Part shown: one piece after another, positions 362-59,911 of the stretch
Layout of the letters: the number at the start of each line of letters is the position of its first letter
Position numbering within the stretch: position 1 is the first letter of the stretch
From: Gyrodactylus bullatarudis
Taxonomy: Eukaryota; Platyhelminthes; Monogenea; Gyrodactylidea; Gyrodactylidae
Assembly (NCBI GenBank): GCA_012064415.1
Contig: SSNU01000218.1
Span: 1-64,000 of the forward strand
DNA: 64,000 nt
Reading direction: 5' to 3'
The notes under the pieces: model-generated
Seen by the model: the letters and a program-made list of their open reading frames with translations, nothing else
Database searches by the model: none
Told to the model about the DNA's origin: nothing
Program-made: the position numbers and the translations under genes

Positions 362-2186
362 AGCTCCAGAGTGAGTCAATCTTCGAAAATTCGTATTTAT
401 ATTGTTTGAAGGACTCAAGTATTCTGATTTTCTCAAAGAATTTGAGCTTGCTGATTGGTTACAATTTAAGTGTTAAGAATGAACGATAGCTTATTGGTGA
501 ATAAAGCTCTACTTCCGTAAGCTCTCTATAGACCAAACTTATATTCATGAAAATTCAGGGAATATAATAAGCTCATTAATCACAGGCATAAACACATCTC
601 TCCGTTTCCAGTTCTTTTCTATTGCTAAATTTTCTTTGGTCTGTGAACAATCCAAAAAAGGCAAAACTTTATTCAAAAAAATTCTAGCACGGCTCCCAGT
701 CAGAAAAAAATTTTAACTGATTTAATTATTTTTAATTACACTTATAAAAAAAAATAGGAATTATACGTAAGATGACGAATTTTCAACATTCCAACCTTTC
801 TTTTATTTAAAATTCCTTTTTTTATATAACCTATTACAGATCCCACAATTTATTAGAGTAAATAAGTATCCTTTGTAACTAACATTCTCAAAGTATGGAA
901 GAAGATCCAGAATTCTTGTATGTTTGTCAGGAAATTTGATTTAAGTAATTTTAATACTTGAATATAGTAGCGTAGATAAGTTTGTTTTCAATACAAATAA
1001 AAATTTATACTTCTAATACACATCTCTTTCTAGTGATCGTTTGAAACTGGAAGAGTACGTTTCAAGCATATATTTGAATCTTATAAATATAGAATGATTG
1101 TAACATCGTGAGTTTCAATTGAAGGGTCAAAGAAAATTCGATATGAGTGCAATTTTCGCAGCTCTACATATACAAATAGATTCTCATAATATTAAAGTAA
1201 AATCCAAAATTTTTCCAGAATAAATTATGAGTAAGGATTTAAATTATTTGTTAAATTTAAAATAGAGACAATGGGATGTAAGAGGAGGTTCATATTTTGA
1301 TGCTCGAAAGATTTCATATCTTGTTGTAAGGAAAATAAAAAGTATTAAGTTTCCTTTGACAGATTTATTGATTTCTGGTGAGCGAAAACTTTTGAGAAAC
1401 AGGAATTTTGAATGTTAATTTAGTGACGGAGAATGGTAGGTTTATTAAAGCAGAAATGAAATTCTCGATATTGCTGATCGATTTCTTTTTTTCCAGGCAA
1501 GAAGCATATTTGTAGGCTACTGAGTTGCGATTTTTTTACTATACGTGAAATTATATATATGGATAAATTTCATGGTATTTTTTCAAAAAGTATTGAAAAT
1601 TTTAAGTAAGTTTCTTGATCAGCATAAAAAATAATTTTAACAAAGATTATGCTATACAGTGTTAGTTTTATTATATTTAAAAATTTTATTCCTAATAAAA
1701 TATATCTTGAAGAAATAATAAGTGAGAATTATCCCTCTAAAATATTCCGTTATATTTGATATTCGATAAAAGTGAACTCAACCAAAAATATATATTTCGG
1801 TTAACTGACAAGAAAAGTTTTACTTGGCCCATAATGCTTTGTTAATAATATTGACCATCTCTAAGGAGGCCAAAAATAAGAACCATGAAATTTAGAAAGA
1901 TATTTTCAACCGTTGAGATACCTGATTTGAGTGTATGACATGATTTAAAACTCCTTGCACTTTATCAAATTTAGACATTTTTTAATTACAGACATGAGCT
2001 TACACATTCCCTCTTCAAGTGAGTTGTGTTTAAAAATTTTATTTCCATATTGATATGGATGAAATCAACAGAGAGAAGAAATTAAAGTTTTATTGTTTAT
2101 AACAGCAACATGAAATTTATACGAGAAAAAATGATAACTACAAATAATGATTTCTAATAATTTCTCTTAATCAGAAATTTGGAGCA
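362..2186 (+). CDS. micro-exon gene 1 (partial model)
   Basis: Candidate internal exons, each after an AG acceptor and before a GT donor: 362-370, 894-917, 1034-1054, 1219-1230, 1363-1377, 1497-1511, 1591-1605, 1992-2018 and 2175-2186. Lengths are 9, 24, 21, 12, 15, 15, 15, 27 and 12 nt, all multiples of three. All are open in phase 2; several (for example 1034-1054 and 1219-1230) contain a stop in phase 0. Joining them in order creates no stop at the split codons. The predicted peptide is acidic and aromatic (segments such as MEEDPEF, FIDF, HELTHSLF). The class B promoter lies just upstream. No domain is recognised; the start codon and 3' end are not identified. The exon grammar is directly visible; that it is one transcript is inference. 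Confidence 0.6.
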
Positions 2187-2209
2187 GTAAGTTTGAGAAC
2201 GAAATAATA

Positions 2210-2335
2210 CAGGTAAAAGCTCTGTAAAGTGACACGACTGAAAATAGAAGTTGACTATATATATATACCATTTCTGCCCCAAATTTCATCACATTTGGAC
2301 CAATAATATTCGAGCAATGTTAGACCAATCAGAAT
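2210..2335 (-). promoter_or_regulatory. class A promoter-like module, antisense to gene 1
   Basis: Read on the minus strand: CCAAT boxes (2325-2329, 2300-2304), a GGGGCAG run, a TATATATATA stretch (about 2257-2268), then GTCACTTTACAGAGC and TTTTACCTG. The same module occurs at 10370-10490, 18115-18215 and 22135-22255 in the same orientation, and reversed at 22835-22910 and 53030-53191. No minus-strand micro-exons follow it. It may be a relic, an antisense promoter or a bidirectional unit. Confidence 0.45.
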
Positions 2336-2379
2336 GAAGCCTTATTCTTCATAAAAATTCCCAAAGCTCCAAAATTGTT

Positions 2380-2720
2380 TCTACTATCAGATTCCTAAAT
2401 TTTACAATATAGCAATGAAATTTAGTAGATGGTCTTAATATTTAGTGCTGATTTTTATCCATTTTCGAATCATCGAGGTTAATAATCAAAAGTAATTTTT
2501 CATTTTCCCAATTTCTCACACACACACTCACATAATGCGTCATCCTTTTTTGGATATTTGTACAATGTGTGTGTACATGAGGAGGGGGTATACATGTCAA
2601 TCAGAGTTATAATGTATCTCTTCCCCTTAGTGTGAAGATTACAATCCCCTACCCAATGCGATTTGTTATTGCATTGATGTACAGTTGTACCTAAGACTTG
2701 CGTGTGGAAAATCAAACACT
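2380..2720. repeat. copy 1 of a three-copy segmental duplication
   Basis: This stretch, including the TACAATGTGTGTGTACATGA and GTGAAGATTACAATCCCCTA segments, aligns by eye with 10560-11000 and more distantly with 22330-22740. Copies 2 and 3 contain a terminal coding exon that copy 1 has lost between the matching flanks near 2470. A CA-rich microsatellite sits at 2517-2535. The duplication unit appears to be a gene 3' end plus the intergenic region before the next promoter. Confidence 0.5.
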
Positions 2721-2739
2721 TTTCAATCTCCTCCGAAAA

Positions 2740-4290: not shown

Positions 4291-5174
4291 GATGGTTTTC
4301 TCACATCAAATGTTGCAGAATCTTTAAATGATAAATTATTATATATTCGCAATCTTCATCCATTTCATGGAATTACTCCATTCATAAATTGCCTCTAGGA
4401 TTTATTTTTATTAAGCAAAATGCTGATAAAACCTCCCTTTTATCTGACTTTTATCATATGCAAAAAGTTGAGAATTCTATCGAAACTTAGGAATGTTTTA
4501 ACACCTTTCTTTTACAAAATGGACTCAGTAAAAAGAGCGAGTAAAAAACCTCTGCGATCTCGAAGATCCGGAAAAGCAATGCTAGGATTATTCCCACTTT
4601 GAGGCTACTTTTGGAATTAACCCTAAAAAACATTATAAAATAATTTTAATAAATTATCGAGATACCATTCAATAGATAGGTCTTTTGATTACCTAAGAAT
4701 CGAAACTTATGATTCATAAAAAATAAGGGTCAACCAAAAAATTTTTTTTCGAAATTTTAATTTGAATTTTATCAAGCAAAATGAAAACGCCCGTTAAGTA
4801 AGTGAAAAATCGATCAAGAATAAGAATTAAAATCCAAATTTACAGATGAATAAATGATATGTAAAAATTATAGTACTTATTTCCCCGTGTAAGATCAAAA
4901 TCCGCGAGATTCTTAAAGCATATTCTAGTCTTTTTGATCTGATGTAAGTTGAACTGAAAAAAAATTAAACACTATTGAGAAGAGATATTGTTATTCATAT
5001 TAATAATTTTTACTATTATATTTCCGGGAGTTTATTTCTTGAATTGATAGATTTTATATTTTACTTTCTTTTTGTTAAAATAGTAAAATTTTTCTTCTTC
5101 GTTAATTTTTGTCATTTTTTTGATTTGTTTTGCGAAGGATTAAATTTTCATCTGTTCAATGATTTTTCGTTTAG

Positions 5175-6498
5175 TAAATCTTGGAAAGAAGAATTGTTTT
5201 TTATGTAAGTAATTAATTTTTATATTTTACTTTACGCTATTTTTCAGGTTATTATACAGAGGATATTCATTTGATTTTATATATACGTCCACTTATTTGC
5301 ATTTCAAAAATCGAAAGGTGAAATAACAGAAAATAAGAACATTAGTTTTCATAAAACTTAATGAAAATGAACATGGAAATGTAAACCTGATGCAATTTCA
5401 ATACATAGATTGTTGAAGATAGATATTGCGCCGATTAGAGATTAGAATTTTTATCGCATAAAAATTTGAATCTTCCAGATATTTATCTTGCTTTTAGAAA
5501 TGAGAAAAAATTATTTTACTATAAATTCTACATTCAAATATTTGTAGTAAGCCAATAAAGTAGTAAGCTAGAAACATGAGAGCTTCTCGATTTATTTGAA
5601 AGTCTGGAAGAGCCAGAGTAAGATTTAGCCTTAATAGATTATGACTTTTTGGGTAAAAGAGGGCCGTAACTAATACATCTTGAATTTGTTACAGTCCTGA
5701 AAAGGTTATGTGAGTCACGGAATGAATATTTAAAATATTTACAATCTGATACATAATCTTCTCAGTGAGGATTTCAACAATGAGTGAGTTCGATAGGATA
5801 TGAAGATTGAAATTAATGCATAAATATTTTTTATAAATTTGAATTTTCTTTGATAAATATTTATATTTTAAAAATATTTATTAGGGAAGAGATGTGAGAT
5901 ATATTCTGAATTGAAAGTAAAAATAAATAATGATACTTTTTTCTTATTCAGTTCATCTGAAGATGAAGAAGAAAGTGACTTTGAAGACATGTAAGTATTA
6001 AAATTTGAGAGTGAAAAAATTTCTAAATAATAATATAGCATTAGACAGAATGATAGTTTTCACTCAGAAATCTTATATACACATTCGAAAAGAGAAAATT
6101 CCAATTAATTTGGAAAAAATCATTAAGATTTTATTAATATCCAAAATAATAAATATGTATATTTAAAATGTAGAAAGAAAAAAAACTGTCCTCAGTAATC
6201 AAGATAAACCATGTATCGAAAAAACGATCAAATATTGATATTCTTCTTTTTTGGACTGGTGTCTTATTTTTTAACTATATAAGATTATTGAGTAAACATA
6301 AATTTTGAGTGAAATCTTCTAGTGGTATTAGAACAAAGATATACAATTAATGATTAGCAATATTTGATCCGATCATTTCACTAGATCTTTCATATTAAAT
6401 CTTAAATAAGATTTCAATAATTGATTGAGTCTAATATAAACCGTTTATATTATATATAATATTATATAAACGAATATTTTTAGATATACCGAAGAAGT
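5175..6498 (+). CDS. micro-exon gene 2 (partial model)
   Basis: Candidate exons 5175-5204 (30 nt), 5548-5562 (15), 5766-5783 (18), 5952-5990 (39) and 6484-6498 (15) are all multiples of three and open in phase 2. Donors are GTAAGT, GTAAGC, GTGAGT, GTAAGT and GTGAGG. The 39-nt exon encodes an acidic serine run (SSEDEEESDFED) and hits a stop in phase 0. Split codons across the joins are sense. The gene probably continued to a terminal exon at 10634, with the non-LTR and PLE insertions at 7.1-10.1 kb now inside it. No promoter or start was identified upstream, and no known family is recognised. Confidence 0.55.
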
Positions 6499-16423: not shown

Positions 16424-19400
16424 AGAAGTCAAACTAGAGTAAGCATATTCTCAAATTTTCTAGCTTCTATTTGATGTGAACAAATAGTTTTGTTTTTAAT
16501 ATTATGAACAAAATTATCATTATAATTGAAAATAATATCAATCACCCTACATTTTGTAATTTTTATTTTTCGAATAGGAAATTACTTCCATCGTGAGATG
16601 TTTTACTTTAGTTTAAAACAGCTTTCTTAGTTAAAATTTAACAGAAAAAATATATTTAAAGAGATGTATATTAGTTTATTTACAATTGGATAGTTCTAGG
16701 TGTTTGAGATAATAATTCCCCCATTACCAATTACGACGATCCTAGGGAATTCAATACAGATTCAATTAGAAAATATGTTTTTGAATGAATACTTAAAAAT
16801 TATCTCTTGAGGAAATCTAGACTTATCTTTAAATATATATCTTTAGTTAAATTTTAAAAGATGAATATTTTCAATAATCCAAACGCATTTGAAAATGAAC
16901 TTATATTTTTACTTCAAAATTCTCTGTAAACTCAGTGGTAAAACATAGTAAGTTTGAGAAAAATCTTCAATGAGAACCAGAACCATCAAAATTATTTATT
17001 TTACAGCTGTGAGGCTCGTCAAATAAAACTCCACCATTTCGAGTGAGTGAAGTGTACATTGGATGACTAATATTCTTGATATCCAAAATTATAGTTTTTT
17101 TATTGTTTTTAGACATAATTTTTCCATTGATTAAATGAAATATGAATCCCTCAGAACCCATAGCATATCCTTACATTTTTCTAACAATCTCTATTCTCTT
17201 AGTAAGGGTATCTGAGATATATCCTATTAGTATTCTATTACTTTAGTGGCGAAGTTTTGTAAGTTTCATACTATTTTGAATGGAATATAAACTACATAAT
17301 TAAAGAACTCAAAAAATTTCAGAATTACATTTTTTAGTGATTTCTCACAAGATGAGTGAGTTTCAAAAAGCTTAAAAAAGAAGGCATGAAAAACTCTTTT
17401 GATTGAACACTCGTTTTCATTAGTAGAAATATTTCGATCCAGTTTGACATAGGCTATCAAATTTAAATAATAAGATTGAAAATAGGTTCAACAAACTCTT
17501 AAGAACATATTAATTTTAAATAAATGTAAAATGAAAAAATATTTTCTCCTGCTTCTTAGAATGTAAGTTAATCTCATTTAAAAAAATGTTTTTATGCTCA
17601 ATTTATGTCAATATTTTTGTGTATAATCAAACCAGAATTCATATTGATATAAATTCTCCCTTAAATAAACAGAGTGTAAGTTACCTTAAATAATCACATG
17701 ATTCACGTAATATTTTATATCAGCTTAGTATAATTTATAATCATCATATACCTAAATCGTATATTTAGATTTGTTTAAACATTAGTACATTTGGACTTGG
17801 AGAGTGAGCTTCAAAAAAGAAAGATTTATGTTAACGGAACAAAAAATCATATTATTCTGATTTTTTTCTAAATTTTCATAGAATTGAGCCGTAAGAGTTC
17901 TTTCAATTCGAGTTATTGTCAAATTTCTCCAATCTAAAATTTATGATTTTCAACTATATTTATGAATATCTAAATGAGATTATTATAGTCAGGCATCAAA
18001 TAATTTTATTCGTATTTCATAGTATAAAACAGAACGAGTGAGATAAAACTAAGATATCTAGGACTGTAAAAAACAAAGAATATATATATGATTCATATAA
18101 TATATATACCTGTTTCACAGGTAAAAGCTCTGTAAAGAGTTAAAAATTTCAATTGTACATTGGAATGAAATTTCGACCAATAGGAATCGAAGAAAAAATC
18201 GTCCAATAAAATTAAAGCTTTATTATTTCTCTTAGATTCTATCCAAATTCGTTGTTGTATAGAATTTTTTAACCATTAAATTGACATTCTGTCACTAAAT
18301 TGAGTCTTATATAAATAAATTCGAATAAACCTTCTATGACGTCTGAAAATGGGTCAAGTTAAAAATAATGTCATGCATTTTTGATTTTAGGCTCATTAGA
18401 GAGAACTTTAAATTTTATGTAGTATAGTGAAATATTGTAATTTTTAGATAGAATATGTATCTATGCGATCAAAATTGAAATAGGTAGAAATATTGATTGA
18501 TTTTTCTAGCTCATCAAAAGTCTAATTTCATTCCCCCGAAAAACCAAGCAGATGATTGTAAGCACTAGGTACATGGCGCACCAAGAGGTGTGTTGAGAAT
18601 ATAAGATGTATGTATTTTACTATTGACATGTCTCGATATGTCAATCTGGGAGATCAATGCAATACTTTGATATTTTTATAAAATGGTTTGCTATTTTCTG
18701 ACCGCCCTACCCATCATTAAAAAAAATTATGCAAGATGTCTACGATGTTGTCTATCATTAGCAAATTGCAGTGAGTTTAATTCAAAAGAATTAATCTGTA
18801 TCATAAAAATTACAAGATTTTTTAAACTAAATTATTCAAAAAATTCTTTCTAATTACAGATGGCACTTCTACAAGTAAATATCATTCAAATGTATATGAA
18901 CAACTGTCAATTTTTGGATGAAATCGATAAAATTTTTTTTCCAAACCATTTCGGAAAGTAACTGTTTAAGAATGTTCGATCTACGTTTAATTCTCAATGC
19001 AAATTGTGATTATCAATGATTCGCTATTAATTACGCGTATGGGGTCAAGGGGTTTTATTCTAGATTTAAAATTTGATGTAAAATTTTACTCTCATCACAA
19101 ATTTGGTATTTAAAAAATTCGACCATTATTCGAAAAATTAATAATGAGCAGAAGCCGAAATCTTCTCTCCTGATTGTTTAATTTTACGAATCTTTTTTCA
19201 ACTAATGAAAAGAAAGAATTTATTAATCCTCATCTTTATTAAGTTCAAATGGCTTTATATCATAGAAGAATATTACATCAAAATTTCAAATTTAGAAAGA
19301 AACATCTTTAAGAATTTTTTTAAATAGCCATCAACAAAAATAAAATAAAAAATTTATACTTATTTTACTGGTTATTTAAAAATTTTTCCGAATTCGAATT

Positions 19401-22955: not shown

Positions 22956-23108
22956 CAATAAGAAGAGGTAAGTTTTGATTTTAAATTATTCATATTTATA
23001 CTAACTGATAAAATCAATTTAATTAAATTTTTTAGGAGTGAAAATCTAGAGTAAGTCAGGAAACAACATCTTGTTATTTAAATTTAGAGATATAAATGCC
23101 TCTTGGAA
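22956..23108 (+). CDS. micro-exon gene 4 (5' part)
   Basis: Three closely spaced candidate exons: 22956-22967 (12 nt, acceptor CTTTACTAATCCTCAG, donor GTAAGT), 23036-23050 (15 nt, donor GTAAGT) and 23088-23108 (21 nt, donor GTAAGA). Phase 2 gives NKK, SENL and DINASW, with sense split codons AGG and GAA; the second exon has a stop in phase 0. The gene is interrupted by the Tc1 relic at 23229. Confidence 0.6.
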
Positions 23109-40484: not shown

Positions 40485-41540
40485 TATATAAACAGTTAAT
40501 TCTCTAATAATATATAAAAAGACCAACACGATAAAAAATTATCGACCCTCTACTATATAATTCTAATTTTGAAATCCTATCAATTGCTCTTAATAATTTT
40601 TAGTATAATTATTAGAGAATGTAATATATATATTTATGGATGAAATTATTTTGTCTTCTTGAAACAGTGATAGAGATCTTTAAGATTAGAAGCTCTCAAA
40701 AGCTTTGGGACCTTGATGAAAATTATATATTAACGAATAGTGTTCGATTTATTTATATATTTAATAGAATTAAAAAAAAATTTTAATTCAAAATACTCAT
40801 TTCATACATAGGATAGTTTATGATAGATTAGATTGACTAATTTAAAGCCAGAGTGATAATTTATTTTTTAAACAATTTCTGATAGATTAGTACCTCCGTA
40901 ATGGATGTGAAAAATTAACCCCCTCTTCTCTCTACCCCTGAATTTTATAAACATATCATTGTCGATACTTGAAAGTAGGCATAAAATTGTGATTCAACCT
41001 AAAAGTTTAGTTTCAGTTGAATTTTACACCATTTTATTTTCAGATCAAGACATTACAATAAACTGCATATCTTTAATTGAAAATATCCTATTTATCATAA
41101 ACTAAAGTTGATCATGCACAACTTTTTTTTTAAATCTTTTCGCAAAAATATCTTGGGTGTGAGAAGGGGCCTCTCTACCCCCAAAACAAACAACTCAACC
41201 ATCCCTGTTATGATGACTGGATTCCTGAGCTTATAATAAAAGTATATAGCTTATAAGTATATAGGAATAAACCAAGCATAGTTCAACAATATGTATGTAT
41301 AATACAAGGAAGTATTACAAGTTTATGATAAATGGGATATTTTTAATTAAAGATATGTAGTTTATTGTACAGTTTTGATCTAGAGAGAAGAGTGGGTTAA
41401 TTTTCCAGATCCATTACGGAGGTACTACTGTACTTTGGATTATATGATTATTTACGAATATTTTATCAAAATTTCAGAAATAAAATCAAGGAATTGTAGG
41501 TTCTTTAAAAAAACTCAAAGTCAGTTTTATCAAATTTTTC
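40485..41540. other. AT-rich DNA with an inverted repeat pair
   Basis: 40890-41150 and 41215-41420 share inverted segments (for example TACCTCCGTAATGGAT at 40889-40905 against ATCCATTACGGAGGTA near 41410, and TTACAATAAACTGCATATC near 41052 against its inverse near 41355). A diverged TIR or fold-back element of about 540 bp is likely. No coding frame. Confidence 0.55.
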
Positions 41541-41545
41541 TTCAG

Positions 41546-43305
41546 AGAAAAAAGCGAGTAAGTAAAAAAAATTAAAATTTGATTGATCATTTTAAAAGAT
41601 TAAGCATGGAAGAGTGAGTTCAAATTTTCGAAAAAAATTTCTCTCTTCAAAAAATTTAAAATGAAGTCTTACGTCTGTATTATTTATTATTAAATTAAAT
41701 CTTTAAAAAACAAGTTTCAGAAATGTTTAAGCTTTTGACTGATAGATCAAAAATAATTTTACTCAGGGAAAAAGCCATTATATAGAAAGCTATGTAATTT
41801 CAAAAATACTGCAATAAACTATATTTTCGTGAGTAAAAAATTTTAAAAAAATTAGAATTTATTAATCTACTTTTTTATTTGAAACCTATTTTATCGTTAT
41901 TTATATTGTCTATAACGTTGTTCGCGTTATTTATATATTTAAAATTTCCTTACAGAAAACTCAAATTAGCTATGTACGGTCATTTATGCCATGTTATTTT
42001 ATGTAGAATATATGCTTAATTTTTTAAAGTATTACTTGATTATAAACAAAAACATGTTCACAGCGTGTTCTTAAGTTTCTTATGGTTATTATATTTATAT
42101 AGAATTTTTCTACCCTGTAAAACTCTGGCGAAATTTAAAAGTTTCAAGAGTTCTGAGATGAATCCCTCATCTAACTTAATATTTCACTAAGGTTTCTTTT
42201 GCACCTCAGCCCCAAAAAATCTAACCAATAAGATTCGAGCTCTCATCAGCCAATGAGAAATGAACAGTTCCACATCTCACACATGATGATATAAACAACC
42301 TCAATAATTAAAACCTAAGACGAGATATAAAAAAATATCGCATTTATCTCGTAAAAAAGAGGGAAATAAAAATTTCGAACCTTCATGGAACATTAATTGA
42401 TGGTTAATATTTATAGGGAATATACAAAAGAGTATGTTTTTGACTAGAAAAGAGAGAAATTCAATCTTTTCATTTTCTTTTCAACTTTTGAATAAAAATA
42501 TTCTCTAGTCGGAATGAAAAATTTGATGAGTATGTTTAAAGTATAAATAAAATTTTGTTCCCAATAAAAGACAAGTGAATATTAAGTGATAAAGCTTATA
42601 TTTCAATGATTCTCATCAGAATCTTACACTGGCTTGATATATGCAGGTATATACAGTTAAAAACATCAAAAAATTTATTAAAATCTTCTGATTTTATCAA
42701 TAAGATTTCAAACACAATAAAGGTAAATAGGATAAATTATTTTTTTGTCTCCAAGGTCATTGTTTCCTCCTTATAAATTTTTCACAATATTTAATTATCA
42801 GACTGAAGAAAAAATACAAGTGAGACTTGCACAATAATAAAATATAACAATGAACAATGTTTATCAAACAAAATTATTCTCTATGCTATTTTTCATAAAC
42901 TGTATTCAGGAATGACAAAGCTAAAATGTAAACCCGAAATTTTATAAAATATGACCTTTTTTAAATCAGCGATTTGGAGTTTGTCCTATATTTATCCTAC
43001 ATTATTTTGAATGATAACCTCATGTTATCTGATTTCAGAAATTCTAATATATTTAAATAATGAGTTTGAAATTTCCCCTAGATCGAAAAAGAAAGCATAT
43101 CAGTGAGTTTATGTTTTTAATATGTCTTATTAATAATAATCTAAAGGGATATGGCGTGAGTGTTTTTATTGAAGATAATTTCATACATTTTACAGTGATT
43201 CCAAATTGGCATCGTAAATTTTACCTTAAATTAATCACCATTTATCATATAACTGAATTTTGAATATGACCTTTATTCGATTTTCAGAGTTGATATAAGC
43301 GCAGG
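41546..43305 (+). CDS. micro-exon block 7
   Basis: Candidate exons 41546-41557 (12, GTAAGT) and 41605-41613 (9, GTGAGT) lie upstream of a CCAAT module at 42195-42300. Candidates 42509-42529 (21, GTATGT), 43082-43102 (21, GTGAGT), 43147-43155 (9, GTGAGT) and 43288-43305 (18, GTGAGG) follow it. All are phase 2 and multiples of three; the joins 42509-43082-43147-43288 give GAA, CAG and GCA. Peptides include RNEKFD, SKKKAY and VDISA. Probably the end of one gene and the start of another. Confidence 0.5.
42195..42310 (+). promoter_or_regulatory. CCAAT promoter module
   Basis: CAGCCCC run, then CCAATAAGATTCGAG and CCAATGAGAA; a GATATAAAC TATA-like box near 42288. The CCAAT-spacer-GATTCGAG arrangement matches the class A modules. 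The next exon is 42509. Confidence 0.35.
42585..42650 (-). ncRNA. hammerhead remnant, solo PLE 3' end
   Basis: Minus strand reads AAGCCAGTGTAAGATTCTGATGAG, GAATCATT, GAAATATAAGCTTTATCACTT. It matches the 3' end of PLE-f but with changes in stem I and region II. Only about 60 bases of PLE remain, so this is a relic. Confidence 0.45.
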
Positions 43306-44942: not shown

Positions 44943-47900
44943 ACAAATCCAGAAGTGAGTGCAAATAAAAATTCGTTATATTAGGTTTTATCATTAAGTA
45001 GCAACTGACAGGGTGGTTTTGTAAATAATAACGTATCAATTCACAAAATAAAATATTAAATCATTAGACAGTAAAGGTAGAAACAGCCCTCACAATTAAT
45101 TACTAGATTTAAGCTAGTTGATCTAATATGTATGTATTTGAATATGAATAAGTAGTGATCACTGGCTGAAAAAAATGACATGAAGATAGTAAAATACTCG
45201 ATAATGAGATTATAATCATCTGAATATGCAACATTGGCGACAGAAGCTTTTCTTTTGATTAATATATATGGAAATATCCAGAGTTCTAACTTTTAGTATC
45301 TTAACTTCCCAAAGTAATAATTCTATTGTGATTGAAAAATACTTGAAGAATCAATACTGATAACTATATAGATGTTGCGTCCCATCTGTGTCGAAAGTCC
45401 CATATGTGTTTAAACTCAAACGGGACCTCCCATTTGTGTCGACAATTTTCAGGGGGTGGGGGACACTTTTACCTCTCTGCCCCTTCTCGGGTTTACATGT
45501 ATTTTCTTTTTTTGTTTGTTTTTAAGGTTGGAAATAGAGTATACGGTATATGAAGATGTATCCTCGGCTAAATTAGAGAACGTTTGCCCCTTTCCTTATA
45601 TTTTTATATGGGTAACCAAACGCAAAAGTTTTATTCAAATATTAGTAAGCATATCAAATACTATCTAAAACCACCATTATATGGCGATAACACAACTATA
45701 AATTTTTTTCTCATTAGGTATGTCATCCCTTATTTTGACATCATCCCTTAGAATTTTATCAGCGAATACATCACGAACAAAGTTCCTCCAGTCTACAGCG
45801 GTTTTTTCTGTGATGTCAAGCTGCTGCATCATGTTCTTAGTATTGTATAAACAAAACTCAATACCTAATCTATAATTTAGTTTAAATTTAATACATTTTC
45901 GTGAAAATTTGATTTTGAAGACGATTTTTGAGCAAAATAAGAAAAAAATTTATAGTTGTGTTATAATGGTGGTTTTTAGATAGTATTTGATATGCTTATT
46001 AATATTTGAATAAAAATTTTGCGCTTGGTTACCCATATAAAAATATAAGGAGGAGGTCAAACATTCTCTAATTTAGCCGTATCTTCTTTACAGGTATTCA
46101 AGGGATTTCAAACAGGTCCAGGATCTTGAGTGCTCGAATCCAAGAAATAAAGAGAAATTCAAATTTTTATAACTTTTTCCCTTGAACTTCTTAATTTAAT
46201 GCAACCCCTCATTCGAAAGGATATTTAATTCTGCATCAAATGTGCTTGATTTGATAACTCGATTTATATTTTGATTAGACTGTTTTATTTAATGTAAACA
46301 TTGTATTGAATTCTATTTACCAAAACTATTACTGAGGCATTTTAAACAGCTGATCACATACATTTTTTCGTATGTAAAGTATTATTCTGAGCATCTTGGA
46401 AAATTTTTGTCATTTAGATGTTGAATATCTAAAAAGATTAAATTAAGTGAACTTGAATGAAAAAAAGTTATGCTCTATAACAAGAAGCTTTAAATCCAAA
46501 TAAATCTTCAAATTTTTAGATGCAGAATTAAATATCCTTTCGAATGAGGGGTTGCATTAAATTAAGAAGTTCAAGGGAAAAAGTTATAAAAATTTGAATT
46601 TCTCCTTATTTCTTGGATTCGAGCACTCAAGATGCTGACCCTGTTTGAAATCCCTTGAATACCTGTAAGGAAGATACATTTTCATAAACCGTATACTCTA
46701 TTTCCAACCTTAAAAATAAACAAAAAAAGAAAAAACGTGAAAACCCGAGAAGGGGCAGGGAGATAAGTGTCACCCACCCCCTGAAAATTGGCGACACAAA
46801 TGGGTCGCAACATATATATTTTTCATAGATTACAACAGAATTTTGCAAAATATTTTAATTATTATTGTACACACATAAAAATATTGTTCTTCATTTTTTT
46901 GAAATTATATTTTTTACATGGTAACTATTTTTTCTTGAAATTATTATTACACGGATTTCAGATCTGCTTTCAGAATTTCGCAGCGATTAATATTTTGGCC
47001 GCTATGATTTAATCATATTGATGTATAAAAGCATGAATTAGACAGAATACTTTTATTGGTGGAAGTTTTTGATAATAACTGATTCATTAGTTTTATAAAT
47101 CAAGTTTCATCAATATGATTAAACCAATGAGAATTCAGAAATGAAAATTGATAAAAATTCTGGCTTGGAAAAAGCTCAATAACCTCCAGACGACTTATCC
47201 TACGCTAATAAAAAGGGCACCATTCGAAAGAAAAATGAATTTTACATTGGAATGCATTTAAATATTTCTAATTTTATCAAATCTACACGTCAAAAAAGAA
47301 GAAAAACACTCGAAAAATATGTATTTTTTAAAGGATTTTTCAATTTTTTCTAACTTAACGCGCGTTTTTAAAAGCTTTGCGAGAGTGTTAAATTCACGTA
47401 TTACCCATCAATCAACGCGAAATTTTACGCTCTTTTTAATGAAAATACAATCAATTTCAGATTCCTATGTTTTCATACCAATAATATCAATTAAGTTCAT
47501 TGAGATACTCAAAATTAGCAATTTCTGGTTTTTTGGCCATAGCGGCCAAAATATTAACTGCTGCAAAATTCTGAAAGCAGATCTGAAATCAGCACAAAAT
47601 TTAATTCCAGAAAAGTTAAACCTGATCAAGATCTTATAAAAAAAATTTCTAATCACTACCCGTGTTATTATTTTTTACATGATAACTATTTTATCTGAAA
47701 ATGATGAATGTAAAGCAGTACTTATGAATTTTTCAATAAATTTCATTCAAATTTAACAAGAGATTTGGATGAGTATGTAACATTTTTTTTCTAAAAAATA
47801 TATTTTACTTTCAACAAATTCAATCAATTCGTGTATACTACCATTTTTTCACAGTATTCTTTACATACTATGTTTAAAGTTTCCAAAAATTACTTGAGTA

Positions 47901-48516
47901 AGTATTAAGTAATTTTTTTTATTTCGATGAAAAGTTCAATGTCCTAGTTTGTTGATGCAAATATTCTTCTATTTTCTCAACTAAATTCAGCACTTCTACG
48001 ACAAAGTGAGCCAGATATTTATGTAGTGTTTAATTATATTCAACAATATTGTCTTTCAGAAATTTTAGATCATTCCAGCCTCATATCAATTATGCTTAGC
48101 ATGATGAAATAATATACATTATTCAAAATAACCGTTCAAAATAACTGATCGTCTTTCAGGGTTGATGAAAATATGTAGGTTAAAGCTTAATAATCGCATT
48201 TATTATCTTAATTTTTAAAAATAACTGGTCAGAACAATCGTTTACATTTCAGAAGTAATGAGGATATGTAAGTTAATCCTTGAAAATCATAATCATTATT
48301 CATGGTTTAGAACTCTTCCACCACCATTGGATGGAAAGTGAGATCAAGTTCTTAAGTTATGTTTTAAACAATTTGCAATCAATAATTCGAAATTGTAAGA
48401 AAAAAATATTCCAGAGATACTGTCAGGTGAGTGTTGATAAATCTTAAATAACGTATTTTTGACTTTTATATTTTAATATTAAATACTATGAAATTTCATA
48501 AAACAAGTACTATTAA
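44943..48516 (+). CDS. micro-exon gene 8 (partial model)
   Basis: Candidate exons 44943-44954 (12), 47761-47772 (12), 47880-47897 (18), 48160-48174 (15), 48253-48267 (15), 48415-48426 (12) and 48508-48516 (9); donors mostly GTGAGT/GTAAGT. Phase 2 gives QIQ, DLD, FQKLL, VDEN, SNED and DTV, with sense split codons throughout. 48160 and 48253 look like duplicated exons (GGTTGATGAAAATAT versus AAGTAATGAGGATAT, the same length and position). The Merlin-type element lies in the large second intron. Confidence 0.55.
45140..45372. repeat. dispersed duplicate of 60855-61090
   Basis: About 230 bp matching with roughly three quarters identity by eye, sharing GATTGAAAAATACTTGAA and ATACTC.ATAATGAGATT segments. 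The match ends where the fold-back element begins at 45373; the other copy continues into ATATAGTGTTG, so 60855-61090 may preserve the empty site. Confidence 0.45.
45373..46813. mobile_element. Merlin-type fold-back element with nested inverted repeats
   Basis: Outer arms begin GTTGCGTCCCAT and end ATGGGTCGCAAC (arms about 45373-45565 and 46670-46810). Inside, 45565-45725 is inverted at 45940-46088, and 46088-46240 is inverted at 46500-46670. The whole could fold into a three-way junction. A transposase fragment lies in the first inner loop. The termini and outer arms are visible; the fold is inferred. Confidence 0.7.
45730..45850 (-). pseudogene. Merlin (IS1016-like) transposase fragment
   Basis: Minus strand: KNMMQQLDITEKTAVDWRNFVRD then VFADKI. 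The L.I...T..DW..F.RDV pattern is the helix-turn-helix region before the DDE domain in ISXO2/Merlin transposases. Only about 40 residues survive; the DDE core is gone. Confidence 0.55.
46900..47700. repeat. inverted-repeat element with GGCC palindrome
   Basis: The segment around 46955-47005 (CAGATCTGCTTTCAGAATT ... TTTTGGCCGCTATG) is inverted at 47530-47595. TTTTTTACATGGTAACTATT near 46911 is repeated directly at about 47674. An inner inverted pair ATCATATTGATG/CATCAATATGAT is near 47008 and 47108. A short TTTTGGCCACAATGACCAAAA relative is at 10278. Non-coding; class unknown. Confidence 0.5.
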
Positions 48517-50882: not shown

Positions 50883-51722
50883 AGATGACACCATCATGTA
50901 AATATCTAATAATTATTCGTATAAAATTTATTTCTCAGTAATATTCCTCCGCCAGTAGAATTTCAGTGAGTTGAAATGATTTTAAATTGGCATTAAAATT
51001 TAATGATTGAAAAAATATTAAATAATCTTCAATTTACAGAGATCCTCCGTGAGAATTTAATAATATAAATAATAAAAAATAATAGGGAGAGATGAAGTCG
51101 AAAGTGGATGCTTTATAATCATCAGCCTCTTACATCCCATAAATTAAACAATACAAAGAAAATTTGATCTGATTGGATCTCTATGATAGGTTTCTAGGGA
51201 GGGGTTCATCTGAAGATTTTCTGATTTCAAGCAAAAAAGTGTAACTCTGATCTAGGCTATCTTAATTGAAAGTTTTTTTCTCAACTGTAGGGAATTCGAT
51301 GGTGAAAAGTAGTTTTCTATTCAGAGAACTATAAATTCTACTTCAAATGGTACCAAATTCAGCAATTTCGGACTTGAAATAAGCAAACTTGCCTATTATT
51401 GAATATTAATGTCTGAAAAATGAACAGGTAGTAAAAACCAAAGTAAGAAAGTTTATTTCAAGATTTCAGCAAATTTCAACTTTAAATAAGGAAGGAAGTT
51501 GCTCGGTTTTCGAAAAAAGTTTGTTGGATTCTACCTAACTACTTGGGAGTAGACTCTTGAATTACTTTTTGTCAATTCCCTTATCTCACATACATTTTTC
51601 TAAATATTAGTTTAATAATAATAATAAACATGTTCGAATAAAAAAAAATATTAGAATCAATGAATATTTTCTTGGAGATTATTACAAAAAATTATGTATA
51701 ATTTCTATTTTAGTAAGCCTGC
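50883..51722 (+). CDS. micro-exon block 9
   Basis: Exons 50883-50897 (15, GTAAAT), 50939-50965 (27, GTGAGT), 51040-51048 (9, GTGAGA) and 51714-51722 (9, GTGAGT), all phase 2 with sense split codons ATT, CAA and CCT. Peptides DDTI, NIPPPVEF, DP and KP: proline-rich at the join. The acceptors are all strong (TTTCTCAG, TTTACAG, TCTATTTTAG). No promoter was identified upstream because the hAT relic lies there. Confidence 0.6.
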
Positions 51723-53191: not shown

Positions 53192-53791
53192 GTAAGTAAT
53201 TTCTAATACTATTGCATACTGATTGTGTGTTCATTAAAGTGTATTATATATAACGCATATATAACAGGGGTAAGACTCGGAAAGTGTTACAGAAATAATT
53301 ATTTCTACCAACTCGCAATTTGTCGAACTTGAAAAATAAATTGGGGAATAATAATTAATGTAAGCTTTCTTGGCCATTATTCAGAAATCTATATTCAATT
53401 TTTTTCAAATCTATTGTTTCTTCATAATTGAATTAAACGTATTGAAAATTTTATCAAATCTAGACGGCCCGTGTGAGTAATATTTCATGAATATATAACA
53501 GACCAATATATTACATCAGATCTCATAAACCTAAAGAAGAAACTAGGAACTATCAACTAACATTGCGCTATTTCTAAAAATGAGCTCAAAATTTATTAAA
53601 AAGCACAAATTAAATGCATGTCTATGAAAGAAATACTAAAATAAAAATTGTTTGGTTGCTGTTTTGAACTGATATACGAATATAACTGAACTGAGTAAGA
53701 CGGAACTTAACAAGAAAACATGTTAATTATTTCAAAAACCGAAATCATTCAAACAAAATAACTTGTCATCCTTATTTTGGTATTTAGTACT

Positions 53792-54560: not shown

Positions 54561-54566
54561 CACAAC

Positions 54567-55363: not shown

Positions 55364-56582
55364 TTCAGACTTGTCCTTAAACCTCTGAACCTCTTGACTT
55401 TGTCCGGATCTGGTACTAATGTCCCATTAATAATCACGAATCCCAAATATTTAACCTCATTTTGAGCAATCTGGCTTTTCTCTTGGTTAACCACAAAGTT
55501 GTTTTTCTCCAAAATATTCCGGATTTGAGCAACTTTTTCCAAATGACCTTCTCTAGTTGGGGTGCCAATCAAAATATCGTCTTGATACGCCCTGACACCA
55601 GCAATCCCATTACGCTCGGAAAAATCGCAGGAGCCGCTGAGACACCAAACTGCAATCTATTCGAGTTAAAAAATCCCAGGTGCGTTGACATAGTTGTGAA
55701 TTTCTGAGATTCTTCATCCAACGGTATTTGTAGGTAAGCATCCTTGAGATCCAATACAGTAAGCACTTTACAAGGACCTATGTCATACAGCAACTCTTGA
55801 ATGGTGGGCATATTAAACTTTTCTGCGTCGATAATCTTATTCAATGTGACATTGAAGTCTGTGCAGAGTCTCAACGGACGACTGGAACCAATTTTCTTTA
55901 TGACAGGGACTATTGGGGCTGCTACTATAGGGTTGTCTACTTTGTAAATCACTCCCTTCTTGAGCAGGAACTCAATTTCTTCCTCGACCAGTTTGAGCAA
56001 GGAATAAGGCAATTTCCTATGAGCGAAAACCATGCCTGAATAATTAGCTGAAGATTTAATCATGAAAGATGCTGTTAAACCATTATCTGCAAACTTGATT
56101 GGCATGCAGAATTTAATAACACCAACATTAACAGCATCAAAACATCCCAGTATTGGAATCCCATCTACTTTATCTGTAACTACTAAATCACAACGTAATT
56201 CTTTATAACCGATAGTTAGCACAGTATCCCTTAGTTCTCCCTTAACAGCGATACGATTCATATTAAAATCTAACAGCGTGTGCCTGTATGGAGAAAGCTC
56301 CAAATTTTCAACTTTTACCAAATACCTGATTGGAATGATGCTCACTTGAGAGCCTGTGTCAACAAGAAAACTAATTTCTACACCACACACTGTTTCTCTC
56401 ACATACATTAACTCTGATTTAACATTCTTTACTGAAAATACTGAATAAGAATTAACAAAGACTGGATAAGGTGACATAACTGATTTATTAGAGGAAGGAC
56501 TGCGATTACTAACAGCATTGATCACTCGTCGCTCCTTTGCGAAACAGTTCTTCGTAATGTGTCCTTGGCTGGAACTGTTCAA
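55192..56582 (-). pseudogene. gypsy protease and reverse transcriptase
   Basis: 56582-55569 encodes a C-terminal gag knuckle remnant (GHITKNC), an aspartic protease (FLVDTGSQVSIIP) and RT: PIVAAPIVPVIKK, LRLCTDFNVTLNK, KVLTVLDLKDAYLQIPL (catalytic Asp) and LQFGVSAAPAIF. A frameshift near 55610 leads to AYQDDILIGTPTREGHL (YQDD, 55576-55587) and the thumb KSQIAQNEVKYLGFVI. This is the Ty3/gypsy layout with the protease fused to RT. Confidence 0.85.
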
Positions 56583-57297
56583 TCGCCTCTAAGATGGCTG
56601 GGCGAATCGCATCTGTAGCATCTCAATTGTCTTCTGGGTGCTGACTTATCATTCCCGAGCCTGTCATGAACGGGTGCCTTGAACCTAGCGATTCGATAGA
56701 CAACCGGAATGTCCATGTCTCTGTCACTCTTGATTTTACTAAACGTCTCGATCTTCCTCAGCACATTGTCCAGTGTGACCTTTCCATCTTCTCTCAACTT
56801 TGCGACAAGGTCTCTGTCCTTTATACCATGCAGAAACCAATTAAGAGCCAGCTCGTCAGCCAAATTCCTTGTCTTTAATTCTCTGACCTTTGATTCCACT
56901 TCTAACAGGAAATCACTAAGGCTTTTTTCACCTTGAGTGAGCTTGAAAAAGGATCCCCACTCAATGAGAGGGTTTCTATCTGCCACATATCTTGCAAGTA
57001 CACCGCCCTTAAAATCCGGCCACGAGATGGTCGTCAACCTTTCTCTGTTGAAGATCTTAATGATCCTTTCGAGCTTGGACTTGATAAAGACCCAACCAGA
57101 TAATCGACTTTATCACCTTCTTGCAAGTTAAGGTTGGATGCTATTTGAGTCCATCTTCTCTCGAAACGATAGAAATAATCAGCAAGTTTGACATAATTTT
57201 GCGGTAGGTCAGAAATCCAATCGCATATCGCCATGTTTTGAACTGATATACGAATATAACTGAACTGAATAAGACAGAACTTAACAAGAAATTTCAA
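56579..57297 (-). pseudogene. gypsy gag
   Basis: Two overlapping frames: 57034-57297 (ICDWISDLPQNYVKLADYFY) and 56579-57037 (FLLEVESKVRELKTRNLADELAL and a CYRCDSPSHL zinc-knuckle start). The knuckle is completed in the next frame as GHITKNC, with a frameshift between. The likely gag start ATG at about 57235 lies directly at the inner edge of the right direct repeat. Confidence 0.7.
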
Positions 57298-57469
57298 AAA
57301 CCAAAATCATTCAAACCAGTTGCATCTATAGTTATTCATGAATATCGATCATTATCATTAAAGCCCTGCTAGCGCGTAAGTGAATATGATTATCTTTAAA
57401 TAAAATTCTCGTTAAGAAAAATGATATAATCTAAGCTTCAAAATTGTAGTAACCTCGTCTTGTTTTAAT

Positions 57470-58790
57470 TAAGGGTTAACCCTTTCGATCCCATACGCTT
57501 ATAAATTGAGATAGAGCTCTAATTTCAAAAGCAATGAGTCTTTGTTAAGCTCCTGGTAAATTTTGTCTTCGATCAAATTTCTGTGCGGAATCATCTTCAA
57601 CTAGATCTATGATGGGTCATATGTGACCCATTGGGATGTAAGGGAGTGGCAAAAATATGCGTCTACTTTTAAGTACATAATAATTTGGTGTTTATTATAT
57701 TGATAATATGGAATTTATTTTGATGGTATCTCATGTAACAATTGATTCCATGAGTAATACATAAAAATACATTGCATTCAGAACATAGATCTGAGACCTT
57801 CTTGTTGCAAACTCTGCATCTTCGACGGTCTTTGGAATCTGAAACTTTGACAGGAAGATGCATTTTCTTTGGCTCTTCCAAATCTTAAGAAAAATTGAGT
57901 ATTGAGCTATTATTGGATCTTTTGAATGACATTTCTTCAATGTTGCTCTGATTAGATTCATTAAATGCTCTCTTGAAGATACACGGAAGATACTGTTTCA
58001 GCCTTGACTTTCCTTTGAGCGGAATTATCGGCTCATCTACAGACTGAATTTGATCTTGAGTTCCATTTATAATGCAGTTATTTCTGAAGATCTCTGTAAA
58101 ATCTCTTATTTTGTATAGCCTATCTTCCGTATTCAGGAGAAGATTGTCTGCAAAATGCAGATTTTTTTCCATAATTCAAATTTATTCCTAGGCATGATAT
58201 TTGCAATGGCTTCAACTCTTGTCTGCTTTGTCCAAAAATTTTGATAACGTGGAAGATGTATGATACACATTTTCATAAGAAGACCAAGGAAGATTTTTCC
58301 ATCGTCCAATGTTGCGCCCAGACATTGACAATTTTGAGTCGCGTAGATATTCGATTGATTTACCATCAATGAGACCATACTTTCGCTGAAAAACAGATTG
58401 AAATACTCTAAAATTGTCTCTGCCTGGGATTTATTTTCTCTGCTTTGAAATTATATTTCTATCTTAGGATGATTTCTGGTATTTCTTAAATGATTTGTTC
58501 TCAGATCCGAATCTTCAAGTTCTTCTTCTAGATCATCTACTGGCTCATTGTTGATGAATTCTTGATCAAGAGGCTGAACTTCTTCAACTTCTTCATTTGA
58601 ATTACCATTTGAGCAGGAATCATGAGTAATGAATATGTTTTTCCGGACCGTGTACATTTGATTTCAACCTCATCTAACATTACGTTATATCCCAGTTGGT
58701 CACATATGACCCAAACTTTAAAATAATATACCTCTGGCCCATTGACCAATATAATCAATGTTTTTCATGAGGTATGATAAGCTTTCAGTC
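57470..58790 (-). pseudogene. piggyBac-type transposase relic
   Basis: Minus strand, several frames: an acidic N-terminus (58451-58657), VNQSNIYATQN ... GATLDDGKIFLGLLMKMCIIHLP and RYQNFWTKQTR (58133-58378), NLHFADN then DEPIIPLKGKSRLKQYLP (57885-58172), and the C-terminal zinc-finger RRRCRVCNKKVSDLCSECNVFLC (57669-57881). These follow the piggyBac order. DDD catalytic parts between are largely missing. TTAA at 57476-57479 followed by CCCTTTCGATCCC is a plausible left terminus; the right one was not found. GGGTCATATGTGACCCA palindromes occur inside. Confidence 0.75.
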
Positions 58791-58799
58791 AGGTATCAT

Positions 58800-59270
58800 T
58801 ACATAAAATTAGAAATCTCTATGCCATTTAGTATAGTAATTAAAGAATATTGAACGAACACTTGGTTTTCATGGTAGACAAGGATTCTTAAAAGCTGTAC
58901 AAAAGGTGCTAATTAAATTCTGGTCGCAGATTAACAGTATTTTAATAAGACGATGTTAAATTTGCGATAGAAAAAGGATAACCATTCCTTGGAAATCAAT
59001 TGTATCCACGCATGTAGTAAAATATAAAAATAATTTTACGTTCTATTATTATGCCATGGACAAAGTTTATTGAAGAGCATTTCATATCTAATGATGATTG
59101 ATTTAAAGTAATTCACAAGGTATAACTGTACAACAGACTAGAAAACTAAAGCATGTAAATGAAAAATATTAAGCATACTTTGTAAGGATATGAAAAGAGT
59201 GTATTTAAATAAAAGCTAATTATAAGAAGTATATGTATGTATTTAGGTTTTGCAATATAATCAAAATTCA
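58800..59270. other. AT-rich DNA, no feature recognised
   Basis: No frame, exon or repeat recognised. Confidence 0.5.
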
Positions 59271-59276
59271 TTCAAG

Positions 59277-59911
59277 TCGAACTGCGTGAGTATTTTTTCC
59301 TTTATTCTCTCTCTTTGATAAAGCTTTAAATAATTTTTCTTTTGACTAAATTACTAAAATTAAATTCAACCCCACCATAGTATAAAATATCCTTGAAGCA
59401 CTTCTACTCCGTAAGTTAATATGATTATCGGCAACTGCTATCAAACGAGTTGAGGGGTATTTTTGCACTAGTTAATGCATTGTCAGAACTTATCACTAAA
59501 TAAACACATAGATAATTAAATTTATTCATGTCCAATTATCTTATTAACTCTTAATATAGAGGGTATACGAAGATAGTATTTTAAAAATACTATTTTTCAT
59601 TAATCAGCTCGCTGATCCAAATTTCAATAAAGTCGATCTGGGTGAGTATTTTATATTTAAAGAAATTTAAGGCTTAGTTTTCATTATCAGGAAAATAAAG
59701 TCTTATAATTCTTGAAGGCCTATCAATGTGTAAGTAATTATTTGATGAGAATAAGATTATTAACAATTTGAACACTTAAGATGAAACATCAGTACAAGTA
59801 TTAATTCATATATTTTTTGTAGAAGACAAACATTAAAGTATGGACTCTTTTAAATCAGATTTACGAGAGAATACTAATTTCAATATCAAATAGGGCGACT
59901 ATAAAAATAAG
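59277..59911 (+). CDS. micro-exon block 11
   Basis: Six candidate exons: 59277-59285 (9), 59399-59410 (12), 59633-59641 (9), 59718-59729 (12), 59823-59837 (15) and 59894-59911 (18). Donors GTGAGT, GTAAGT, GTGAGT, GTAAGT, GTATGG and GTAGGT. All are phase 2; split codons GCC, CCT, GGG, GTA and AAG are sense. Exons 59277 (TCGAACTGC) and 59633 (TCGATCTGG) look duplicated, both followed by GTGAGTATTTT. No start or end was identified. Confidence 0.55.

What the first reader, a model, noticed from the sequence alone, without database searches (positions are those of the whole stretch)
362..59911. A one-strand family of phase-2 micro-exon genes spread across the window
More than 50 candidate exons of 9-48 nt on the plus strand have an AG acceptor and GTRAGT-like donor, have lengths divisible by three and are open in phase 2; many have a stop in phase 0. 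By my count all but a handful of about 40 strong plus-strand GTRAGT donors outside transposons fit, while the minus strand has about five strong donors. Random DNA would give one third for length alone and a loss to stops. The closest known architectures are schistosome micro-exon genes (symmetric exons) and aphid bicycle genes (many tiny phase-2 exons), both families of fast-evolving secreted proteins. No sequence homology to either was seen. Exons were picked by eye, so some selection bias is possible.
Basis: partly seen in the sequence, partly recalled or inferred. Interest (0 to 1): 0.92.

Follow-up and report, generated by a model that had tools for sequence, protein, structure and literature searches.

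The report
Micro-exon genes in a fish fluke
This stretch of a gyrodactylid flatworm genome carries at least one protein gene chopped into some forty tiny exons that cut codons at the same place, so exons could be left out without breaking the reading frame, much like the micro-exon genes of blood flukes.

Summary
A fixed-rule test with nothing trained finds 19, 4 and 1 acceptor-GTRAGT pairs of length mod 3 = 0, 1, 2 on the plus strand and 2/0/1 on the minus. Codon usage learned from other genes of this genome fits phase 2 (+37 bits; other offsets +6 and -1). Twelve stretches elsewhere in the genome do not show it. A chain model gives 44 exons of 3-39 nt (median 15) over 58.5 kb, against 1 on the minus strand and 1-4 in 12 shuffles.

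COX1 places the organism in or near Gyrodactylus, so flatworm micro-exon genes (MEGs) are the nearest known kind: exon sizes, symmetry and introns match. Aphid bicycle genes share only the tiny phase-2 exons.

I found no convincing signal-peptide or last exon and no homologue, and had no RNA. 'Secreted' and 'family' are not shown, nor is one gene separable from several. The predicted peptide is hydrophilic and disorder-like. I read it as MEG-like gene(s), built for in-frame exon skipping, in an ectoparasitic monogenean: a new variant of a known kind.

The parts
1219..1230 (+). predicted micro-exon 12 nt, INY
   Evidence: chain model; near the 5' end of the contig, weaker donor
1992..2018 (+). 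predicted micro-exon 27 nt, HELTHSLF
2175..2186 (+). predicted micro-exon 12 nt, NLE
4777..4797 (+). predicted micro-exon 21 nt, KMKTPV
5175..5204 (+). predicted micro-exon 30 nt, KSWKEELFF
5695..5709 (+). predicted micro-exon 15 nt, PEKV
5766..5783 (+). predicted micro-exon 18 nt, EDFNN
5885..5893 (+). predicted micro-exon 9 nt, EE
5952..5990 (+). predicted micro-exon 39 nt, SSEDEEESDFED; its 3' part with the donor occurs once in the genome
15125..15163 (+). predicted micro-exon 39 nt (weaker), FCMEIQDDKISY
16424..16438 (+). predicted micro-exon 15 nt, EVKL
16578..16592 (+). predicted micro-exon 15 nt, KLLP
17007..17042 (+). predicted micro-exon 36 nt, CEARQIKLHHF
17338..17355 (+). predicted micro-exon 18 nt, DFSQD
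17786..17803 (+). predicted micro-exon 18 nt, TFGLG
18860..18874 (+). possible micro-exon 15 nt, strong acceptor, weak gtaaat donor
   Evidence: not in the chain
19434..19445 (+). predicted micro-exon 12 nt, YSN
20322..20333 (+). predicted micro-exon 12 nt (weaker donor), LLS
22100..22105 (+). predicted micro-exon 6 nt, N
22956..22967 (+). predicted micro-exon 12 nt, NKK
23039..23050 (+). predicted micro-exon 12 nt, ENL
29212..29232 (+). predicted micro-exon 21 nt, KFHELA
   Evidence: no repeat over it
30170..30199 (+). predicted micro-exon 30 nt, YFDHIFTSN
31336..31347 (+). predicted micro-exon 12 nt, VEE
31434..31460 (+). predicted micro-exon 27 nt, RKMRDDTK
41478..41495 (+). predicted micro-exon 18 nt, NKIKE
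41546..41557 (+). predicted micro-exon 12 nt, EKS
41599..41613 (+). predicted micro-exon 15 nt, LSME; 41-nt intron before it
42802..42819 (+). predicted micro-exon 18 nt, LKKKY
43082..43102 (+). predicted micro-exon 21 nt, SKKKAY
43288..43305 (+). predicted micro-exon 18 nt, VDISA
44943..44954 (+). predicted micro-exon 12 nt, QIQ
48160..48174 (+). predicted micro-exon 15 nt, VDEN; with its flanks a likely tandem duplicate of the next one
   Evidence: duplication
48253..48267 (+). predicted micro-exon 15 nt, SNED
48311..48337 (+). predicted micro-exon 27 nt, TLPPPLDG
48415..48426 (+). predicted micro-exon 12 nt, DTV
50883..50897 (+). likely micro-exon 15 nt, DDTI; acceptor 13.1, weak gtaaat donor
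   Evidence: not in the chain
50939..50965 (+). predicted micro-exon 27 nt, NIPPPVEF
51040..51048 (+). predicted micro-exon 9 nt, DP
51714..51722 (+). predicted micro-exon 9 nt, KP
53464..53472 (+). predicted micro-exon 9 nt, RP
59277..59285 (+). weak candidate micro-exon 9 nt; its flank resembles that of 59718
59718..59729 (+). weak candidate micro-exon 12 nt

Best explanation
The plus strand carries one or a few protein-coding genes whose coding sequence is split into about 40 micro-exons of roughly 6-39 nt, separated by introns from 41 nt to several kb into which transposons have inserted. The exons start with a third codon base and end with a second one, so the primary transcript could be spliced with any subset of exons and stay in frame. 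Because the split codon is cut before its wobble base, the residue at the join would usually stay the same too. Most likely it works like a flatworm micro-exon gene: constitutive plus alternative inclusion of short cassettes (up to 13 codons) yields a pool of related, flexible, hydrophilic proteins. A second run of the same kind lies beyond the window on the opposite strand, converging on it. Shown by computation: symmetric, open, strand-specific exons whose codon usage fits phase 2. Inferred: splicing, alternative inclusion, number of genes. Not supported so far: secretion.
For: Untrained, cross-validated and held-out length tests. Codon-usage test with stops given no weight: +37.2 bits for phase 2 against +6.2 and -1.3 (22 untrained GTRAGT exons); +16.3 against +0.6 and -18.2 in 26 flank exons taken without an open-frame filter. 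Chain of 44 exons against 1-4 in shuffles. G is richest at codon position 1 of the phase-2 reading (0.25 against 0.15-0.17). Exon lengths have median 15 nt, introns median 665 nt, 30 of 43 between 100 and 5000; S. mansoni MEGs have mostly 15-bp exons and introns of 0.1-5 kb (PMC10526429, passages). Organism: COX1 is 89% identical to Gyrodactylus. In a set of 45 plus exons, joining any exon to any later one keeps the residue of the unskipped join in 67% and makes a stop in 3.6% of 990 joins, against 21% and 11% if the same ends were read in phase 1. Exons 48160 and 48253 with their flanks match in register (68.5% over 89 nt, E 6e-5).
Against: No transcript was available. No convincing first or last exon: one weak phase-2 and seven phase-0 or phase-1 hydrophobic first-exon candidates on +; two last-exon candidates on + in the window, of which 46094 lies in a repeat and 62895-63048 is no better than candidates on the minus strand. 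No homologue of the 244-residue peptide among 5.8 billion proteins (1325 candidates scored), no Pfam match above cut-off for a 311-residue version, no significant PDB match for its last 80 residues (best E 0.19). Half of the plus GTRAGT sites (28 of 56) are not in the chain. Off-phase pairs are not absent (52/10/14 at score 15), so perhaps 2 (shuffles) to 12 of the listed exons may be false. The best exon duplicate shows no extra conservation of the exon (60% against 76% in the introns). Two whole-genome pattern scans show only modest excess over the reversed-pattern control (207 against 133, 97 against 79). The advantage at joins is a general property of the code, not evidence that skipping happens.
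Confidence: 0.72

Rival explanations
1. An ordinary large intracellular gene (for instance a cytoskeletal or adaptor protein with long disordered linkers) happens to be encoded by micro-exons; it is not a host-facing variable protein.
For: Hydrophilic, E/K/S/D/N/P-rich peptide with a negative fold index and no hydrophobic stretch (GRAVY -0.90); proline-rich and coiled-coil-like stretches, judged by eye; no convincing signal peptide.
Against: No Pfam domain above cut-off, no homologue, no significant PDB match for the part searched; outside transposon ORFs only two longer phase-2 exons score, both doubtful (36844, 53102); an ordinary gene would mix phases. MEG proteins are also described as disordered (PMC10526429, passages).
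Confidence: 0.35
2. Several separate micro-exon genes lie head to tail on the plus strand (a cluster), as in the tandem MEG cluster of Hymenolepis, rather than one long gene.
For: Gaps of 6-10 kb between exon groups (5990-15125, 23050-29212, 31460-41478); tandem MEG family described in Hymenolepis (PMC7653826, passages); on the flank a LAMP-like gene interrupts the minus run.
Against: No convincing first or last exons found between the groups; the three gaps hold transposons, which would lengthen introns of one gene.
Confidence: 0.4
3. The pattern is a by-product of eye selection or of AT-rich sequence with chance splice motifs.
Against: Fixed-rule, cross-validated and held-out tests, codon usage, opposite strand, shuffles and 12 control stretches separate it from chance.
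Confidence: 0.02
4. The exons belong to a repeated element or a non-coding RNA.
For: The region is rich in transposons.
Against: In the three exon-bearing stretches searched, the repeat matches listed lie in intron parts and none covers an exon (in one search 40 of 1073 candidates were scored); one chain exon of 44 (38176, 3 nt) lies in a transposon span drawn by hand; length symmetry and codon usage speak for protein coding.
Confidence: 0.03

Closest known systems
Micro-exon genes (MEGs) of schistosomes and tapeworms
   Same: Parasitic flatworm; exons of 3-39 nt divisible by three with median 15 nt; introns mostly 0.1-5 kb; runs of many consecutive micro-exons; disorder-like product.
   Different: No convincing signal-peptide 5' exon or long 3' exon found; about 40 exons in one chain against 10-20 in S. 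mansoni; exons in phase 2 throughout the chain; strongly hydrophilic product, whereas S. mansoni MEGs share apolar motifs (PMC10526429, passages); no transcript.
Bicycle genes of aphids, with the >100-micro-exon megacycle gene
   Same: Many tiny internal exons, almost all in phase 2 (PMC9168663, passages).
   Different: Different phylum; no N-terminal signal found and no CYC motif; only 2 cysteines in 244 residues. Likely convergence.
Single micro-exons in ordinary animal genes (general knowledge)
   Same: Short, symmetric, strong splice sites.
   Different: There a few micro-exons sit among long exons; here no convincing long exon was found.

Membership tests
Micro-exon gene (definition of Olson et al. 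2020, PMC7653826, passages) | exons under 70 nt with length divisible by three | tested here: met
   44 predicted exons of 3-39 nt; excess of mod-3 lengths in untrained and held-out tests
Micro-exon gene (definition of Olson et al. 2020, PMC7653826, passages) | at least seven exons, at least half micro, run of four or more micro-exons in a row | tested here: inconclusive
   met by the predicted chain, but the true transcript and its long exons are unknown
Micro-exon gene | signal peptide mostly or wholly in a long 5' exon (PMC4671649, passages) | tested here: inconclusive
   one weak phase-2 candidate on + (17943-18037), none under a tighter rule; the window starts at the contig end, so the 5' exon may be missing
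Micro-exon gene | long 3' exon with the stop | tested here: inconclusive
   candidates at 46094 (in a repeat) and 62895-63048, neither better than those on the minus strand
Micro-exon gene | alternative splicing of the micro-exons | not testable with these tools
   no RNA data
Micro-exon gene | parasitic flatworm | tested here: met
   COX1 of a gyrodactylid
Bicycle gene | almost all internal exons in phase 2 | tested here: met
Bicycle gene | signal sequence and CYC motif, hemipteran insect | tested here: not met
   no CYC and 2 cysteines in the 244-residue peptide; flatworm

The most novel reading that the evidence does not exclude
Monogeneans, the ectoparasitic branch of the parasitic flatworms, have their own micro-exon genes of an extreme form: about 40 or more micro-exons, cut in phase 2 throughout, in two converging runs that fill most of a 104-kb contig. 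They would encode variable disordered proteins, which would mean that micro-exon coding predates blood feeding and complex life cycles, or arose again independently.
Probability: 0.45. Interest if true: 0.75.

Novelty: new variant of a known kind. Interest (0 to 1): 0.58.

Why it matters
MEGs are known from flukes and tapeworms, and their origin has been linked to blood processing (PMC5825161, section title and passages). A monogenean locus built the same way would let their age and their link to parasitism be tested in a worm that lives on the outside of fish. The phase-2 rule shared with aphid bicycle genes would suggest that unrelated parasites reach the same gene structure because cutting before the wobble base makes exon skipping safe for both frame and residue. 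[quoted passage not shown]

Tried and rejected
A signal-peptide exon at contig 96023-95836 on the minus strand, with a phase-2 donor and a TATA-like box, first looked like the 5' exon of the flanking micro-exon run. Its relatives on C467, C5 and C428 and its own second exon show a two-exon LAMP-like membrane protein (PF01299, 30.4 bits against a cut-off of 27.2; the C467 relative tested gave no Pfam match), so I dropped that reading.

Genome-wide pattern scans for acceptor-exon-donor were too insensitive: each caught only one site in C226, and the one ran through from an upstream acceptor. The mod-3 tallies were 40/29/26 of 95 distinct strings (one search listed only the first places of 207; 5 duplicate rows dropped) and 34/24/29 of 87 (97 rows; 10 copies or near-copies of two repeats dropped). 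A candidate second locus, C119:393701-399700, showed no phase-2 run.

Similarity of the plus and minus peptides: none (score 45; shuffles 38.7, s.d. 6.7, 52 of 300 as high). A weak Pfam match (PF14703, E 7e-4, below its cut-off) is put down to composition. A possible duplication of the 48253-48426 exon block at 50883-51048 is only suggestive. Two attempts at an 18S rRNA search did not complete. Two homologue searches found nothing, for the LAMP-like first exon and for the joined peptide.


Full report
Where it is. The window is bases 1-64000 of a 104,589-base contig (C226) of a 77.3-Mb genome in 471 contigs. It is AT-rich, about 30% GC. COX1 on a 14.9-kb contig has 12 TGA codons inside its frame; read with the flatworm mitochondrial table it is 89% identical over 97% of its length to a Gyrodactylus albolacustris entry, then 84% to Macrogyrodactylus and 83% to Cichlidarus and Paragyrodactylus. 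The organism is therefore a Gyrodactylus or close gyrodactylid monogenean. Published gyrodactylid assemblies are of similar size, 67-91 Mb (passages of PMC12677651; I read its column heads GB and GS as G. bullatarudis and G. salaris).

Is the pattern more than chance? GTRAGT occurs 56 times on the plus strand and 12 times on the minus; shuffles give 20.8 with s.d. 4.4. I tested length and phase in five ways. (a) A hand-set acceptor score, best acceptor per donor within 3-48 nt: 22 of 26 plus-strand segments have length mod 3 = 0 and 21 of those are open in phase 2; the minus strand gives 3 of 4 and shuffles about 1.4 per class. The other 30 of 56 donors had no acceptor above the cut. (b) A pure rule (pyrimidine-rich YAG, 6-48 nt, all pairs): with GTRAGT 19/4/1 on plus, 2/0/1 on minus, 2/2/1 and 1/2/2 on the two strands of 111 kb from 12 other places in the genome; with GTRAG[ACG] 8/2/1 on plus, 1/4/2 on minus, 7/7/8 and 2/2/2 in the controls; with weaker donors no clear effect (29/20/27 on plus). 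(c) Cross-validated matrices: 15/5/2 and 15/2/4 on plus, 1/4/3 and 0/0/1 on minus. (d) The unseen 40 kb next to the window: 26/4/6 on the minus strand with 24 of 26 open in phase 2, 3/6/1 on plus; by the pure GTRAGT rule 7/0/1 and 1/2/0. The same matrices give 46/46/40 (score 13) and 20/13/12 (score 15) in the 12 control stretches, both strands. (e) Codon usage: log-odds from 1338 codons of LAMP-like ORFs of the same genome, stops set to zero, give +37.2 bits for phase 2 and +6.2 and -1.3 for the other two offsets in the 22 exons of (a); +16.3, +0.6 and -18.2 in 26 flank exons taken without an open-frame filter; but only +7.8 against +6.4 and +3.3 in 15 flank exons with GTRAG[ACG] donors. This last test matters because openness alone rules out phase 0 (5 of 22 open) but hardly separates phase 2 (21) from phase 1 (18). 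Segments of 60-120 nt show no length effect.

Anatomy. A dynamic-programming chain of phase-2 exons gives 44 exons on plus (735 nt, lengths 3-39, median 15; introns 41-9134 nt, median 665), 1 on minus, and 1-4 in 12 block-shuffled copies. The false share lies between about 2 (the shuffles) and about 12 (the mean of the two off-phase classes, 10 and 14 pairs, at score 15, many of which will be mispairings of true sites); the four exons of 3 or 6 nt and those beyond 57 kb are the weakest. Three 3-nt exons of the chain (38176, 52567, 57373) are left out of the parts list, and two others (50883, 18860), with strong acceptors and weak gtaaat donors, are added; so the list is not complete. The last exon base is A or T in 33 of 45 plus exons, unusual for an animal donor (general knowledge), and goes with a strong GTRAGT on the intron side. 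Long gaps hold transposons: Penelope-like elements, a pair of Tc1-like elements, an LTR element and shorter repeats. In the three exon-bearing stretches searched against the whole genome, the repeat matches listed lay in intron parts (the list is capped).

Product. Joined in order, the exons encode about 245 residues rich in E, K, S, D, N and P, with GRAVY -0.90, a negative fold index and no hydrophobic stretch. Part of the end of the chain reads VDENISNEDITLPPPLDGKDTVSNIPPPVEFQDPPKPA, junction residues included. No homologue of the 244-residue version was found in 5.8 billion proteins, no Pfam match above cut-off for a 311-residue version, no significant PDB match for its last 80 residues. 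The flank's chain encodes about 163 residues, also hydrophilic, with no similarity to the first. Exons 48160 and 48253 with their flanks match in register over 89 nt; in a search of that segment against 400 random window segments the 12 rows I printed all came from the same place. This points to growth by tandem exon duplication, but the exon itself is not better kept than its introns (60% against 76%, gap-optimised alignment), so it gives no evidence of constraint.

Ends. On plus I saw one weak hydrophobic first-exon candidate with a phase-2 donor (17943-18037), which a tighter rule dropped, and seven with donors in other phases. Last-exon candidates in the window are 46094-46172, inside a repeat, and 62895-63048 with a poly-A signal 25 bases on; the minus strand gives similar ones. 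The one attractive first exon, on the flank, belongs to a separate two-exon LAMP-like gene. Since the window begins at the contig end, the plus gene may start off the contig.

How it most likely works. The exons are symmetric and cut between codon positions 2 and 3, so any exon can be skipped without a frame change. In the 45-exon set, 67% of 990 possible later joins keep the residue of the unskipped join and 3.6% make a stop, against 21% and 11% were the same ends in phase 1; one of the consecutive joins in that set itself makes a stop, so at least one of its exons is false or not joined there. This is the third-position redundancy of the code; it explains why phase 2 would be favoured in a gene that varies by exon skipping, but does not show that it does. 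Splicing itself, alternative inclusion and the role of the product are inferred.

Compared with what is known. Olson et al. (PMC7653826, passages) define MEGs by exons under 70 nt divisible by three, at least seven exons, at least half micro, and a run of four; the predicted chain fits. S. mansoni MEGs have 10-20 exons, mostly 15 bp, with introns of 0.1-5 kb and a constant signal peptide (PMC10526429, passages); 26 of 33 micro-exons in MEGs 26-32 are symmetric and the signal peptide lies mostly in the long 5' exon (PMC4671649, passages). For MEG-8 and MEG-9 a phase-2 last exon is noted (PMC5825161, passages). Aphid bicycle genes have almost only phase-2 internal exons, and one conserved member has over 100 micro-exons (PMC9168663, passages). 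The locus works like an MEG by structure; membership stays open because the signal peptide and alternative splicing could not be shown.

Novelty. Searches of the held library for monogenean or Gyrodactylus together with micro-exon or microexon gave no description of such genes in a monogenean. One search listed 20 of 99 papers. Of the papers I read passages of four and saw PMC8481699 only as a listing. One passage speaks of a micro-exon gene of a myxozoan fish parasite (PMC7923790). Another lists micro-exon gene organization among proposed gains of parasitic flatworms and cites Tsai 2013 and Hahn 2014 (PMC4398949). I tried the Gyrodactylus salaris genome paper under a DOI recalled from memory and it is not held, so an earlier mention there cannot be ruled out.

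Noticed in passing
contig C226 64001-104000 (L002-L005), minus strand: A second run of 20-30 symmetric phase-2 micro-exons on the opposite strand (chain model), converging on the window's run; it is outside the window.
   Followed up: partly
L005, contig C226 96023-95321, minus strand: Two-exon LAMP-like membrane protein gene (PF01299) with a TATA-like box, sitting inside the minus-strand micro-exon run; tandem relatives at C467:561-566 kb and single ones on C5 and C428.
   Followed up: yes
11709-13256 and 33679-35226: Two Tc1-like elements with transposase ORFs on the minus strand (DDE_3 in the one scanned), 99% identical over 1548 bases, so recently moved; inverted ends of about 220 bases.
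   Followed up: partly
7713-8903, 25032-27018, 39381-40067 (+), 62077-62454 (-): Fragments of Penelope-like retroelements: reverse transcriptase above cut-off in the first, a GIY-YIG match just below cut-off in the second; the last two assigned by eye only.
   Followed up: partly
53792-57109 (-): LTR-type element with reverse transcriptase and weak aspartyl-protease matches, in several frames; described only.
   Followed up: no
30316-30581 and 30731-31328: Short interspersed repeats; one search lists 119 matching pieces elsewhere for the whole stretch (40 of 1073 candidates scored). In C363 the repeat match ends 7 bases before the micro-exon at 31336, reaching into its acceptor.
   Followed up: no
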